NCBI GenBank assembly: GCA_026984795.1
Contig: JALSRK010000057.1
Span: 62,001 to 126,000 of the forward strand
Origin: Solibacteraceae bacterium
GTDB taxonomy: Bacteria > Acidobacteriota > Terriglobia > Bryobacterales > Bryobacteraceae
Direction: 5' to 3'
DNA: 64,000 nucleotides
Each line of letters starts with the position of its first letter. The stretch's first letter is position 1. The translations under genes were made by a program, and so were the position numbers. Below, in pieces: positions 26,746 through 52,982 of the stretch. The notes beneath the pieces are model-generated. The model was not told the DNA's origin. It saw only the letters and a list, made by a program, of their open reading frames with translations, and made no database searches.

Positions 26746-26800
26746 GCCTAAATCGGTGACACGCCTAAATCGGTGACAGGCCACTCAATTCCCAATTTCC
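26746..26800. repeat. Short direct repeats with the AAATCGGTGACA motif
   Basis: The unit 'cgcctaaatcggtgaca' appears at 26746, and again at 26762 with a following 'ggccactcaattcccaat'. The same unit opens each of the longer tandem copies that follow at 26801 and 27044. Confidence 0.7.
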
Positions 26801-27043
26801 GCCTAAATCGGTGACAGGCCACTCAATTCCCAATTCCTGCTGCGGGATGCGGGCCGCCGGGACGCAGGCCCGCCGCCGTCTGCCCGCCGATTTGGTGATT
26901 GCGTCGCCTGTCCCCGAAAAAATTATCTGAACGAGTACCGGGACGCGGCCGACGCCCGGGCTCGGATCGGACGGTTTCTCCAGGACTACTACCACCGGAG
27001 GCGGCTGCATTCCTCGCTGGGCTACCGGACGCCGGAGCGTTTC
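26801..27043 (+). repeat. Tandem repeat copy 1 (243 bp) with IS3 transposase tail
   Basis: Nearly identical to 27044-27282. The unit opens with cctaaatcggtgacagg and ends in the C-terminal coding part of an IS3-type transposase. Confidence 0.85.
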
Positions 27044-27049
27044 GCCTAA
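26927..27049 (+). pseudogene. IS3-family transposase (OrfB) C-terminal remnant, copy 1
   Basis: Forty codons reading 'EYRDAADARARIGRFLQDYY' and then 'HSSLGYRTPERF', the end of the DDE integrase core of IS3-type OrfB. No upstream part of the gene is present, and the frame ends in TAA inside the next repeat copy. Confidence 0.8.
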
Positions 27050-27282
27050 ATCGGTGACAGGCCACTCAATTCCCAATTCCTGCTGCGGGATGCGGGCCGC
27101 CGGGACGCAGGCCCGCCGCCGTCCGCCCGCCGATTTGGTGATTGCGTCGCCTGTCCCCGAAAAAATTTGAACGAGTACCGGGACGCGGCCCACGCCCGGG
27201 TTCGGGTTGGCGGTTTCTCCAGGACTACTACCACCGGAAGCGGCGGCATTCCTCGCTGGGCTACCGGACGCCGGAGCGTTTC
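27044..27282 (+). repeat. Tandem repeat copy 2 (239 bp)
   Basis: Follows copy 1 without a gap and differs by a few substitutions and small deletions, including a one-base loss that shifts the transposase frame. Confidence 0.85.
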
Positions 27283-48477: not shown

Positions 48478-49050
48478 CTATGCTTCTCCGGCAGCGGCCT
48501 GAATGGGACCCATGTTGGCCGCTTCAGCCTCCCGCAAGAACTCGTCGGCTTCCTTCACGGCCAACTCCGCCTCAGGGATCGAGACGTGGGGCTTCAGTTT
48601 GTGGATTCTTGCCGCGCGCTCTTCCCTGGGCGCCTCCATGTCCAAGGTCACGTAGATGGCCGTGGCGAATCGCTCCAGCGTCTTGACGTCTTTGCCGCCG
48701 AGACGCTTTGCTACGAATTCGATCTGCTTCTCGTACCGCTTCGCCGCAGCCGAGAACTGCCGTTTCAGCGCGTCGGCCAGTTCCCCTTCTTTCAGGCTGG
48801 GTCCGTAGGGAAGCGCACGCACCTCCCAAGCCAGAAAACCCTCAGCCCGCATAGCGTTCAGCTCACGCCTCAGATCGAAGGAGAACGGGCCGTGCTTGTA
48901 CAAGATGAACTCGTAGCCCAATGGCACGCCGAGCACCCGCGTCAGCACGTAGGCTGCTTTCTGTACGTGGGTCTCGCCGGTCCAGCTCCCCTCCCTTCTC
49001 AACTGCTGGGTCAACGACAGCAGCACACTGGCAGCTTCTAGTCTGTTCAT
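48478..49050 (-). CDS. YwgA/Panacea-like protein coupled to the cas operon
   Basis: 190 residues. The N-terminal half (HVQKAAYVLTRVLG, YEFILYKHGPFSFDLRREL) has the pattern of the YwgA/DUF4065 (Panacea, SocA-like) family: a K near an early helix and the 'Y-K-H/Y-GPFS' turn. Panacea domains occur as antitoxins or adaptor proteins. The ATG overlaps the stop of the small ORF upstream by 4 nt, so it is translationally linked to cas1. Its job in CRISPR biology is unknown. Confidence 0.6.
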   Translation of the reverse strand: MNRLEAASVLLSLTQQLRREGSWTGETHVQKAAYVLTRVLGVPLGYEFILYKHGPFSFDLRRELNAMRAEGFLAWEVRALPYGPSLKEGELADALKRQFSAAAKRYEKQIEFVAKRLGGKDVKTLERFATAIYVTLDMEAPREERAARIHKLKPHVSIPEAELAVKEADEFLREAEAANMGPIQAAAGEA

Positions 49051-49184
49051 TGTTCAGGACCGCTCCCAGATGACAGGATCTGTTCCTTGTTATCGTCGAG
49101 CCACGTCTTCGCCTTTTCTTTCGCTTCGGGCGCAACGAACACATACTCTACCGCGAAGCGAGGCGGCTGCGCCTCCCCCCTCAC
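49047..49184 (-). CDS. 45-aa ORF between cas1 and the YwgA-like gene
   Basis: A GTG overlaps the cas4-cas1 stop (GTGA), and the stop overlaps the next ATG (ATGA), so the ORF is coupled on both sides. The protein contains FAVEYVFVAPEAKEKAKTWL and DDNKEQILSSG, a plausible amphipathic helix plus a short strand. It is too short for family recognition. Coding is supported by the precise overlaps rather than by homology. Confidence 0.5.
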   Translation of the reverse strand: MRGEAQPPRFAVEYVFVAPEAKEKAKTWLDDNKEQILSSGSGPEQ

Positions 49185-50965
49185 CGCGTCACGAAGACCG
49201 GGTACTCCGGGATCTCGCCCTCGATCACCCGCGCCAGCAGCCGCGCCTGGATCTCCAGCAGCCGCCGGTAGCTCACCCGGTAGTCGAACAGCGGATGCGT
49301 CACCAGCGAATCCATCCGCAGCTCGTAGGCGCGGAAGAACGACTTCCGCCCCGACGCCGTCAGCGCCACCGCCTTGCCCGCCCGCACGAAATCCTTCGCC
49401 GTCACCATCCGCGTGTTGATGGCGCTCAGCACCGCCGATTCGGCGATCAGCGGCCGGAACGGCTCCATCAGGTCCAGCGCCAGCGCCGGCCGGCCGAAGC
49501 GGGGCTGGTGGTAGAAGCCCAGGAACGGATCGAAGCCCACGGCGTAGCAGGTGACGGTCAGGTCCTTCGCCAGCAGACTGTAGGCGAGCGAGAGCAGGGC
49601 GTTCACCGGGTCGCGCGGCGGGCGCCGGTTCCGCTGGTTGAAGTCCAACCGGAACTCCCCTGCCCCGTCGTCCTCGTCCACCTTGATCATCCCCGAGAAG
49701 CGGCTGAAGTACAGGCGCGCCGCGTTGCCCTCGATGCCCAGCAGCTCCTCGATCGACCGCGCGGCCTCGGCCCGCGCGATCATCTGCTTCATCTCCCCCA
49801 GCACCCGGCCCTCCGGCTCGATGTGGTTGCGCTGCAGCATCACCCGCTGGTTGCGGATCTTGCCCGCCACCAGCGCCCGCGCCAGCCTCAGGGCGAACCA
49901 TTCCTGATCGGCCAGCCGGAACTGCGCCCGCCGCAGGAAGACGTTCTTCGTGTTCATCCCGGTGGTGACGCCGTAGAACCAGCCGCCCTGCGAAAGGTAG
50001 CAGATCGGCACCCCGGCCTCGCACAGGGCCTGCACCGCTTGCGTCGAGAGCTGCACGTTGCCCATCAGGTTCAACTGGCAGATCTCGCCGATGCGGACGT
50101 CCTGGACCACCTTGTCGCGGTCCTTCACCCGCAGCACCTTGCCCGTCTTGCCCACGCGCAGCCCCTGGGTGTTCAAGTAGAGCGGCTTCAGCTCGTCCCT
50201 CGGCGTGACGAGCTGGCGGACCCTCTCCGGTTTCTTCCGCGGCGCGCCGGCTGCGGCGGGCTCGAACAGCGGCAACTGCGAAGCGGGCGGCGCTGCTTCG
50301 GCCGTGAGGAACCCGGTCTCGTCCGGCAGGCAGATCCCGGCCAGCGAGCAGCGGGGGCACTTCGGCGAGTCCTCGAGCGGCGGCGGCAAGCGGCCTTCGG
50401 CGGCCACCCGCCGGGCTTCGGCCACCTTCTCAGCGGCCTCGGCGATCACGGCCTCGTCGAAGCGGATCCGCACCCGCTGGCGCGTCCGGGCGTAGAAGAT
50501 GATCCCCTCTTCGACCTGGTAGCCGTTGTCCCGCAGCACCATGGCCTGGACGGCGAGCTGGACGCGGTCCGCCGGCCACGGCTCCAGCCCGTCGTCGCCC
50601 TTGGCGGGCGCCCCGTGCTTGTAATCGACCGGGGTCACCGTGCCGCCCTCGGCCTCGACGAGGTCAATCCGCGCGATGACCCCGTAGCGGTCGCTCGAAA
50701 GCATCACCGACCGCGTCTTGAGCTCTTCCTCGCCCAGCTTCCCGGCCTCCGGCAGGGCCCCTTCGCCGGCGTCCACCCGGCGGTGCTCCACCTTCCCGGC
50801 GACCGTGTCGGCGCTCTCTTTGAAGACACCCTCCACCCACTCGAAGAAGAAGAGGCGCGGGCAATAGACGAACTCGTTGACCATCCGCGCCGGCAGGTAC
50901 TCGGGAACGCTTTCTTTTTCTCTGGCGGGCGTGGCGGCGGGACGCGGCTCCGGCGTGGCGCTCAT
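49181..50965 (-). CDS. cas4-cas1: Cas4-Cas1 fusion protein (type I-G)
   Basis: 594 residues. The N-terminal ~200 residues are Cas4: 'VNEFVYCPRLFFFEW' and the C-terminal cysteine set 'CPRCSLAGICLP' that binds an Fe-S cluster, with the nuclease motif 'PVDYKHGAP'. The C-terminal part is Cas1: metal ligands Glu in 'GIEGNAARLYFSRF', His in 'GFYHQPRFG' and Asp/Glu in 'LDLMEPFRP'. Cas1 with Cas2 integrates new spacers, and Cas4 trims them and selects PAM. This fusion is characteristic of type I-U/I-G and some I-B systems. Confidence 0.9.
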   Translation of the reverse strand: MSATPEPRPAATPAREKESVPEYLPARMVNEFVYCPRLFFFEWVEGVFKESADTVAGKVEHRRVDAGEGALPEAGKLGEEELKTRSVMLSSDRYGVIARIDLVEAEGGTVTPVDYKHGAPAKGDDGLEPWPADRVQLAVQAMVLRDNGYQVEEGIIFYARTRQRVRIRFDEAVIAEAAEKVAEARRVAAEGRLPPPLEDSPKCPRCSLAGICLPDETGFLTAEAAPPASQLPLFEPAAAGAPRKKPERVRQLVTPRDELKPLYLNTQGLRVGKTGKVLRVKDRDKVVQDVRIGEICQLNLMGNVQLSTQAVQALCEAGVPICYLSQGGWFYGVTTGMNTKNVFLRRAQFRLADQEWFALRLARALVAGKIRNQRVMLQRNHIEPEGRVLGEMKQMIARAEAARSIEELLGIEGNAARLYFSRFSGMIKVDEDDGAGEFRLDFNQRNRRPPRDPVNALLSLAYSLLAKDLTVTCYAVGFDPFLGFYHQPRFGRPALALDLMEPFRPLIAESAVLSAINTRMVTAKDFVRAGKAVALTASGRKSFFRAYELRMDSLVTHPLFDYRVSYRRLLEIQARLLARVIEGEIPEYPVFVTR

Positions 50966-51364: not shown

Positions 51365-52975
51365 CTAGCTCTGCTTCACCGCCGGCAGGAACAGCCCCAG
51401 CCCAAAATGCGCCGAGTGCCCCAGGCAGATCGGGCCGCGCACCGGCTCGGGGAATTCGATCAGGAACGAACCGCTCGGCCGCCGGCCGCCGTCGTCGTCC
51501 CGTTTGCGCGAACGGAACCGTTTGAACTGCAGGGGCCGGAGCCCGGGGCCGGTCGCCTGCGGCTCCCAACGCCGGGGATCGATCCGGAAAGCGCCCGGGG
51601 GATCCTCGATCCGGCTGATCCGGAAGTCCGGCTGTTTCCACGGCAAGCCGCGCCGCTCGCAGAACCGTTCGAGCTCTTCGCGCAGCACCTGCTCGACAAA
51701 GGCTTGGCGGTCCTGCAGCAGTTCCACCGGATCCCGCTTTCGCCCGTTCTTCTTCGGATGCCTCGTCGCCAAGAACGGCGTTGCCGACACCCAGCGTTTT
51801 GACTTTTCGAGAACTGGAACACGCAGTTCCTCGATTCGCCCCAGACCCACGAGCAGAAACAGCAGCTCTGGGTTCTCCTCGCCGCGGCGGAGCTTGTGCA
51901 AGCGATCCAGCGCACGGACCTCTTCCCGAGTGAATCCATTCTCGGCGACTACCGTCACGTGATCGATACGCCCGTCGCCGTCCTCATCGGTCGCCAGGTA
52001 GTACGCGTGCCCGTGGCCGGTAAGCGGGTTGCCCTTGGCGTCCTTGCCCGAAAACGTCTCCGAGCGGCCGTTTACTCCATTCCACCTAGTTTCTCTTCCA
52101 TACCTTCGCAACAGCTCCGATCGAACTTCCTCGGCGATTGTCAGCGTCTCGGTCACCAGCGGCAGCACCTGGGAGTCCAGAACGTATCGGGCGACCTGAA
52201 TGTGGCGCTGCGGAGCCGGCTTACGTCTTGGCTTGGACGGCTCGGGATGAAAACAGTCGGCTGGCCGAACATACATAACCCAGCGTGATCCCGGCGGGTC
52301 CGACCACTTCTCGGCGTGAAGCTGCGCCGTCTCGATGCACAGGTTCCAGGCGGGATCGTAAACCGGCCGCGACGATCTTCGCTTCTTACCTCCGAGAGGC
52401 TTCACGTGCTCATCACTGAACGCCGTTTCCGGATCGGCGCACAATACTTGGACGAGCTCCCCTTTCGCCCCGGCCGCCGAGCCGTTCACTGGAAAACAGT
52501 TCACGTCCACGGCAGCCGCGTCTTCGGGGCTGAGCAGCCGCCCGATGCACCAAGACTCAGCCCGCCCCACGTAGGCAAGCTTGTCCAGCAAGTTTTCCAG
52601 CAGTCGCCTCTGCTCCGGCGACAGTTCCACACCGGGCCATACGGCGATCACTTCGCCGTCACGCCCGACGCAAACGAACGTATCGAACACCAGCGTCTGG
52701 TCTTCCGGTCCCTTCTTGAACCACCGCATGTAATGGCGCGTGTGTCCCACCGTCGCCCGGGGCAAGAAAAATCGCGGGGGAGCCGAGAGCCGTTGCAGCA
52801 ACTCGCGCACCTGGGACTCGCCGATCTCCGGAGCCTTGATCTTCCAGACGGCGACCAGGGATCGCAACAGTCGCCACGGCGACGGCGGCCACTCAGGAGC
52901 GCCCTCGTTGACGTGGCGCCCCCACGGCGTCGAATGGAAACGCCCCGCCGGAAACTTCAGCGCGATCGCCGTCAT
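51365..52975 (-). CDS. csb2: Csb2 (GSU0054 family), Cas5/Cas6-like Cascade subunit
   Basis: About 536 residues. The opening 'ALKFPAGRFHSTPWGRHVNE' followed by 'EWPPSPWRLLRSLVAVWK' is the signature of GSU0054/Csb2. In type I-U/I-G this protein combines Cas5-like and Cas6-like RAMP folds and is expected to process crRNA and cap the Cascade complex. ATG 52975 has a GAGG site; GTG 52978 is also possible. It starts 8 bases after csb1. Confidence 0.88.
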   Translation of the reverse strand: MTAIALKFPAGRFHSTPWGRHVNEGAPEWPPSPWRLLRSLVAVWKIKAPEIGESQVRELLQRLSAPPRFFLPRATVGHTRHYMRWFKKGPEDQTLVFDTFVCVGRDGEVIAVWPGVELSPEQRRLLENLLDKLAYVGRAESWCIGRLLSPEDAAAVDVNCFPVNGSAAGAKGELVQVLCADPETAFSDEHVKPLGGKKRRSSRPVYDPAWNLCIETAQLHAEKWSDPPGSRWVMYVRPADCFHPEPSKPRRKPAPQRHIQVARYVLDSQVLPLVTETLTIAEEVRSELLRRYGRETRWNGVNGRSETFSGKDAKGNPLTGHGHAYYLATDEDGDGRIDHVTVVAENGFTREEVRALDRLHKLRRGEENPELLFLLVGLGRIEELRVPVLEKSKRWVSATPFLATRHPKKNGRKRDPVELLQDRQAFVEQVLREELERFCERRGLPWKQPDFRISRIEDPPGAFRIDPRRWEPQATGPGLRPLQFKRFRSRKRDDDGGRRPSGSFLIEFPEPVRGPICLGHSAHFGLGLFLPAVKQS

Positions 52976-52982
52976 CACCGCC

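What the first reader, a model, noticed from the sequence alone, without database searches (positions are those of the whole stretch)
48478..49184. Two genes translationally coupled to cas1: a 45-aa ORF and a YwgA/Panacea-like protein
The cas4-cas1 stop overlaps a GTG (GTGA), whose 45-codon ORF ends in ATGA, starting a YwgA/Panacea-like gene. Panacea domains are known as antitoxins that neutralise small toxic proteins encoded beside them (family knowledge). A small ORF plus such a protein locked to the adaptation genes could be a toxin-antitoxin guard of the CRISPR locus or a regulator. No case of this with type I-G is known to me; that is inference.
Basis: partly seen in the sequence, partly recalled or inferred. 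Interest (0 to 1): 0.7.

Follow-up and report, generated by a model that had tools for sequence, protein, structure and literature searches.

The report
Orphan antitoxin-like gene behind cas1
The two small genes behind this CRISPR locus look like the cut-off end of a separate two-gene cassette (an HD enzyme plus an antitoxin-like partner) joined to cas1 where the CRISPR array usually sits, rather than a built-in guard of the CRISPR system.

Summary
The layout is exact: cas4-cas1 stop/GTG overlap, 45-codon ORF, ATGA, 190-aa gene. The interpretation changes. The 45-aa ORF is not a small toxin: it matches the last strand and helix of a ~443-aa SAMHD1-family HD protein that lies upstream of the 190-aa protein's relatives (27 of 27 genome loci). 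In the window about 400 HD codons are missing, and the remnant starts within 3-20 nt of the cas1 stop. The 190-aa protein is intact and resembles the toxin-binding C-terminal domain of antitoxin DarG (26 of 26 members match; fold Z 16.3), not Panacea. None of 58 other type I-G loci shows this tail; 48 of 58 show a CRISPR array there. No array of that repeat type was found in the window or its assembly. Best reading: a mobile HD-antitoxin cassette was truncated and joined to the end of cas1, leaving an orphan antitoxin-like gene. Six viral records carry the pair and two phage-like records carry the partner without HD (one 79% identical to the window's), which fits a toxin-antitoxin or defence pair with phage-borne antitoxin as counter-defence. 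That function is inferred; nothing was tested at the bench.

The parts
48478..49050 (-).
   Evidence: ORF; NCBIfam DarG positions 169-313/338, E 1.6e-6; PADLOC DarG E 4e-8; predicted fold matches 7yk3 DarG, Z 16.3
49047..49184 (-). 45-codon ORF: C-terminal remnant of a SAMHD1-family HD gene; first ~5-7 codons not clearly homologous
   Evidence: tblastn and alignment with HD tails of relatives; in the HD model the equivalent piece is the last strand and last helix
49163..49184 (-). junction between cas1 and the HD remnant
   Evidence: DNA alignment to L067 begins at 49177, 3 nt past the cas1 stop, its first bases weak; protein homology firm from about residue 8; GC3 0.943 in cas4-cas1, 0.659 in the remnant
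49181..50965 (-). cas4-cas1 fusion, type I-G
   Evidence: NCBIfam NF049935, 771 bits
51056..51349 (-). cas2
   Evidence: Pfam and NCBIfam cas2
51365..52978 (-). csb2
   Evidence: NCBIfam TIGR02165
52983..53984 (-). csb1 (cas7g)
   Evidence: NCBIfam TIGR02570
53981..56392 (-). csx17 (cas8g); start probably further in, as the profile match begins at residue 46
   Evidence: NCBIfam TIGR04113
56272..58896 (-). ORF in the cas3 position, helicase-like by eye
   Evidence: ORF list; not run against a family library

Best explanation
A two-gene cassette, an HD protein of the SAMHD1/dNTPase family followed by an antitoxin-like partner, lost about 400 of ~440 HD codons, and what was left was joined to the end of a type I-G cas operon just behind the cas1 stop. 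The leader and CRISPR array that most relatives carry there are absent. The result is a 45-codon remnant without a fold of its own and an intact, orphaned partner gene downstream of the cas genes. In intact cassettes the partner most likely binds and restrains the HD enzyme, as the DarG C-terminal domain binds DarT; in the window it has no cognate HD protein. Shown by sequence: homology of the remnant, pairing in relatives, fold of the partner, absence of this tail and presence of an array in most related loci. Inferred: the deletion or recombination event, co-transcription with cas genes, and the toxin-antitoxin relation.
For: HD lies upstream of the partner in 27 of 27 relatives' genome loci, the window being the exception (in L002 only the last 74 residues of HD are on the contig, in L071 only residues 1-34 match). 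The remnant matches HD tails at 53% (L067), 57% (L007) and 59% (L122), best 43.1 bits against at most 21.6 in 500 shuffles. HD identity: Pfam HD and HD_assoc_2, PDB 2hek, 2o6i and SAMHD1, PADLOC dGTPase. Junction within 3-20 nt of the cas1 stop with a step in GC3. 0 of 58 other I-G loci carry the tail; 48 of 58 show an array. No full HD gene in the assembly (positive controls). DarG-like fold.
Against: No close relative with the same fusion, and none with the intermediate state, was found, so the event is inferred. The remnant shows no faster divergence than expected (residual -0.015 against -0.103 to 0.077 for 14 relatives) and its frame is intact, so continuing function is not excluded. csb1 and csx17 also have lower GC3 (0.73, 0.69), so the composition step is supportive only. 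The partner is not acidic overall (27 acidic, 28 basic residues), unlike what DNA mimicry would suggest. Of the 58 I-G loci 5 others also lack an array or repeat motif behind cas1, so array loss is not tied to this cassette.
Confidence: 0.75

Rival explanations
1. Assembly chimera: pieces of a cas operon and of an HD cassette were joined by the assembler; in the cell cas1 is followed by the usual leader and array.
For: The genome is an assembly of 77 contigs; most related loci have leader and array at this point; composition changes at the junction; no array of the expected repeat type is in the assembly.
Against: The contig runs on through the junction into about 48 kb of the window on the other side, with no repeat seen at the junction; the join falls just behind the stop codon and leaves cas1 whole with its conserved ...FVTR end, which fits selection for intact cas1.
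Confidence: 0.12
2. The remnant and the partner were recruited: the orphan antitoxin-like protein, expressed from the cas operon, serves the CRISPR system or protects the cell against incoming HD toxins, with the 45-codon piece kept as a translational bridge or small binding partner.
For: Both overlaps and the frame are intact; the partner keeps the conserved residues of the family; the remnant shows no excess divergence; two phage-like records keep the partner without HD, so solo partners can be useful.
Against: Not seen in any of 58 other I-G loci; the bridge GTG has a weak ribosome site and the partner has its own moderate one; no close relatives to test selection.
Confidence: 0.1
3. One reading: a small toxin plus Panacea antitoxin that guards the CRISPR locus.
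For: Tight overlaps and an antitoxin-like fold of the second gene.
Against: The 45-aa ORF is the tail of an HD protein, hydrophilic (GRAVY -0.85) and equivalent to one strand and one helix; no Panacea match; tail absent from 58 of 58 other I-G loci.
Confidence: 0.02

Closest known systems
DarTG toxin-antitoxin system (C-terminal domain of DarG, structure 7yk3)
   Same: Same fold over 166 residues, Z 16.3; profile match of all 26 members to the DarG model. In DarG this domain occludes the DarT active site (PMC11481870, passages).
   Different: No macrodomain: the 190-aa protein covers only positions 169-313 of the 338-position model. The upstream partner in relatives is an HD protein, not DarT.
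dGTPase / SAMHD1-family anti-phage enzymes, including Clover (CloA-CloB)
   Same: The intact partner is a SAMHD1-family HD protein; in Clover a dGTPase is held in check by the neighbouring gene's product (PMC12265719, passages).
   Different: CloB is a nucleotidyltransferase that makes an inhibitory nucleotide; here the neighbour has a DarG-like fold. Activity of the HD protein was not tested, and in the window it is truncated away.
Panacea (SocA/DUF4065) antitoxins
   Same: Antitoxin-like partner in a two-gene operon, often with mobile elements (PMC8832971, passages).
   Different: No Pfam Panacea match in 26 members; a remote relation is not excluded.
CreTA guards of CRISPR-Cas
   Same: Toxin-antitoxin idea placed beside cas genes (abstract starts in a search listing).
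   Different: CreTA uses small RNAs and repeat-like sequences; here there is a protein gene and a truncated enzyme, and no exact repeat was seen.

Membership tests
DarG antitoxin | C-terminal DarT-binding domain (profile and fold) | tested here: met
   26 of 26 members match PADLOC DarG at E<=0.01; 7yk3 Foldseek E 1.3e-4, Z 16.3
DarG antitoxin | N-terminal macrodomain (or NADAR domain) and full-length score | tested here: not met
   190 aa, covers model positions 169-313 only; 27.6 bits against a cut-off of 250
DarG antitoxin | Encoded next to DarT | tested here: not met
   The upstream gene in relatives is HD; a DarT elsewhere in the genome was not searched for
Panacea (SocA/DUF4065) | Panacea domain by Pfam | tested here: not met
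   0 of 26 members at E<=1; a remote structural relation remains open
SAMHD1-family HD protein (relatives' partner) | HD domain | tested here: met
   Two relatives' proteins: Pfam HD and HD_assoc_2 above cut-off; PDB hits
SAMHD1-family HD protein (window) | HD domain present | tested here: not met
   Only the C-terminal tail remains; no HD match elsewhere in the assembly
SAMHD1-family HD protein (relatives' partner) | dNTPase activity | not testable with these tools
   Needs an enzyme assay
Type II toxin-antitoxin module | Two adjacent, often overlapping genes kept together | tested here: met
   For relatives: HD upstream in 27 of 27 genome loci; 19 of 30 measured pairs overlap
Type II toxin-antitoxin module | Toxicity of one product, neutralised by the other | not testable with these tools
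   Needs expression in a laboratory strain
Type I-G CRISPR-Cas | csb1, csb2, csx17 and cas4-cas1 fusion | tested here: met
   NCBIfam, all above cut-off
Type I-G CRISPR-Cas | CRISPR array at the locus | tested here: not met
   No repeat array in the window; no exact repeat core and no array-like run among the 100 of 110 listed places at up to 3 mismatches; an array missing from the assembly is possible
CreTA guard | Small-RNA toxin with repeat-like antitoxin RNA beside cas genes | tested here: inconclusive
   No exact repeats; degenerate repeats and small RNAs not tested

The most novel reading that the evidence does not exclude
The SAMHD1-like HD gene plus DarG-C-terminal-like partner is an undescribed toxin-antitoxin or defence cassette carried by viruses and islands. 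Its antitoxin half travels alone in phages as counter-defence (L121, L123). The window shows a bacterium that kept only the antitoxin, placed behind cas genes, possibly as protection against incoming HD toxins.
Probability: 0.3. Interest if true: 0.65.

Novelty: new variant of a known kind. Interest (0 to 1): 0.42.

Why it matters
It removes a tempting but wrong claim, a toxin-antitoxin guard tied to type I-G adaptation genes, and is a worked case of how a small gene beside cas1 can be a scar. It also points to a testable two-gene cassette, a SAMHD1-like HD enzyme next to a DarG-type inhibitor, found in genomes recorded under several phyla and in viral records, with solo inhibitors in two phage-like records. 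If the pairing works as inferred, DarG-type inhibition would extend from a DNA-modifying toxin to an enzyme of the nucleotide pool.

Tried and rejected
Family scans of the 45-aa ORF gave nothing in Pfam, NCBIfam or PADLOC; its identity came only from alignment with relatives' HD tails. Pfam named no family for the 190-aa protein, and a Panacea reading was dropped. phmmer of the 190-aa protein found no solved structure and a profile only a weak DarG hit (E 0.063); the fold search settled it. Panacea is not among the structural rows shown, which excludes nothing.

Synteny of the flanking NHL-repeat gene was useless, as that family is abundant (75 of 101 family genomes match). Plasmids gave one weak hit (22% identity), the phage collection none, and the viral scan with L123 only itself. 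L129 was dropped from the viral count: a 46-residue match antisense to a long ORF. L124 and L125 look like one element. The relative-rate comparison cannot tell recent loss from constraint. The HD model is poor overall (pLDDT 62.5); only its well-scored tail was used. Paper searches: 'YwgA' gave two irrelevant papers, 'ywfO' three, seen as a listing only, 'PDC-M19' none, and HD/SAMHD1/toxin-antitoxin/phage-defence 13 papers, of which I read passages of one. In these searches I saw no description of the HD-partner pair. Two reviews or studies were searched for terms only (PMC12737573; PMC10440598).

Full report
WHAT IS THERE. On the minus strand the type I-G operon runs csx17-csb1-csb2-cas2-cas4/cas1, with an ORF in the cas3 position upstream (by eye). 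Past the cas1 stop come a 45-codon frame and a 190-aa gene, with GTGA and ATGA overlaps.

THE 190-AA PROTEIN. Pfam names no family. NCBIfam matches it to positions 169-313 of the 338-position DarG model at E 1.6e-6, far below the whole-protein cut-off; PADLOC DarG matches likewise (E 4e-8). All 26 members of an alignment of window protein and relatives match PADLOC DarG (E<=0.01) and none matches Panacea in Pfam (E<=1); two relatives (L002, L071) were left out of that alignment because their genes are broken or cut. The predicted structure (pLDDT 92.5) matches the DarG chains of the DarTG complex 7yk3 with Foldseek E 1.3e-4 and TM 0.65 and Z 16.3 over 166 residues; the next rows, mostly winged-helix proteins covering about half the model, reach Z 9.3. 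In DarG this domain occludes the toxin's active site by mimicking ssDNA (PMC11481870, passages). The window protein is not acidic overall (27 acidic, 28 basic residues), so the binding idea carries over better than the DNA-mimicry idea.

THE 45-AA ORF. Relatives of the 190-aa protein were collected from a phylum sample (8 of 396 genomes, window included), the GTDB collection (8 loci) and the family (11 of 237 genomes, window included): 27 loci besides the window. In the first of these the stretch just upstream of the gene proved to match the 45-aa ORF, as the extreme C-terminus of a long ORF. Two such ORFs, full length at 443 and 442 aa, carry Pfam HD and HD_assoc_2; one is similar to solved SAMHD1-family proteins (2hek, 2o6i, SAMHD1), and both to the PADLOC dGTPase model. 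An HD match lies upstream in 27 of 27 loci (L002 shows only the last 74 residues before the contig start, L071 only residues 1-34; in L009, L015 and L016 the HD frame is broken). The 45-aa query itself hits 13 of 27 loci at E<=0.1; most of the others belong to a more distant branch whose HD C-terminus differs, while L010 and L012 align only in the multiple alignment. Identity of the remnant to HD tails reaches 53% (L067), 57% (L007; both over 30 residues) and 59% (L122, residues 6-42). The best score of 500 shuffles is 21.6 bits against 43.1. In the HD model the piece is the last strand and last helix, so it is not expected to fold alone. Relative to the partner it has diverged at the normal rate: either the loss is recent or the piece is still constrained.

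THE JUNCTION. DNA alignment to the intact HD-partner locus of G592 starts 3 nt past the cas1 stop; its first bases are weak, and protein homology is firm from about residue 8. Third-position GC drops from 0.943 in cas4-cas1 to 0.659 in the remnant, although csb1 and csx17 are also lower. I examined 58 other cas4-cas1 loci: 29 returned from the phylum sample (37 of 396 genomes matched, window included) and 29 from the family (56 of 237 matched, window included); the further matches were not returned as loci and were not examined. The 45-aa ORF, the partner and HD are absent from the stretches held, up to about 1.5 kb behind cas1 (0 of 58 at E<=0.1). At least two CRISPR repeats lie behind cas1 in 48 of 58, in the closer relatives after 177-229 nt and in a more distant branch behind cas2. 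Five show a single repeat-like motif (L019, L038, L045, L079, L089), and five none (L021, L024, L081, L091, and L092 with 376 nt held). In the window no such array exists, and the assembly holds no exact repeat core and no array-like run at up to 3 mismatches (110 places against 135 for the reversed control; 100 listed). In a 77-contig assembly an array could still be missing.

PAIRS AND SOLO PARTNERS IN VIRAL RECORDS. Three scans of viral contigs returned nine distinct loci; one (L129) was dropped as chance. Six of the other eight have HD upstream of the partner (L122, L124-L128; L124 and L125 look like one element); in L122 an integrase gene is next to the pair. Two have the partner without HD. 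L121, 79% identical to the window protein, lies near phage-type RNA ligase, nucleotide phosphatase and protease genes; L123 lies next to terminase genes. Whole-record searches found no HD in either, with L122 as positive control; both records may be fragments. In L121 close DNA similarity to the window begins at the start codon of the partner gene, the alignment before it being gapped and poor. In G592 the intact pair begins about 60 nt behind a tRNA-Pro gene. This is how a mobile toxin-antitoxin or defence pair with phage-borne antitoxin would look; it remains an inference.

WORKING MODEL. (1) Intact cassette: an HD enzyme, probably acting on nucleotides, restrained by its partner (inferred; precedents are DarG-DarT, and CloA-CloB of Clover, PMC12265719 passages). 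(2) In this lineage a deletion or recombination joined the last HD codons and the partner gene to the end of cas1, with leader and array gone (inferred from comparison). (3) The partner survives as an orphan; no HD copy was found in the assembly. (4) Coupling from cas1 is probably incidental: the GTG has the weakest ribosome site of the six measured, and 4-nt overlaps occur in 9 of 30 intact pairs.

VERDICT. Observation confirmed. The guard hypothesis is not supported; the antitoxin-like identification is. The window locus itself is most likely a scar; the HD-partner cassette and its solo copies in phage-like records are the part worth following.

Noticed in passing
L121:4001-4540 (IMGVR_UViG_3300044960_000334) and L123:4001-4555 (IMGVR_UViG_3300033148_006858): Phage-like records carry the antitoxin-like partner without HD; L121's protein is 79% identical to the window's.
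   Followed up: partly
L081 (G459:C120), behind cas4-cas1: Another type I-G cas1 without leader or array: a 497-aa frame, Cas10-like by eye, begins directly behind the cas1 stop. No family scan was run.
   Followed up: no
L071:1101-1780 (G479): A second decayed copy of the cassette: the first 34 HD residues, then unrelated frame, then the C-terminal part of the partner.
   Followed up: no
L114:7390-9386 (G592:C43): The intact HD-partner pair begins about 60 nt behind a tRNA-Pro gene, a typical place for integrated cargo.
   Followed up: no
window 26762-27078: Three exact copies of a ~36-nt sequence (CGCCTAAATCGGTGACAGGC...) spaced 38 and 243 nt apart; not CRISPR-like spacing.
   Followed up: no
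PADLOC model PDC-M19A (PDLC04505): 18 of 26 partner proteins also match the N-terminal part of this candidate defence protein, so the same domain may serve other candidate systems.
   Followed up: no
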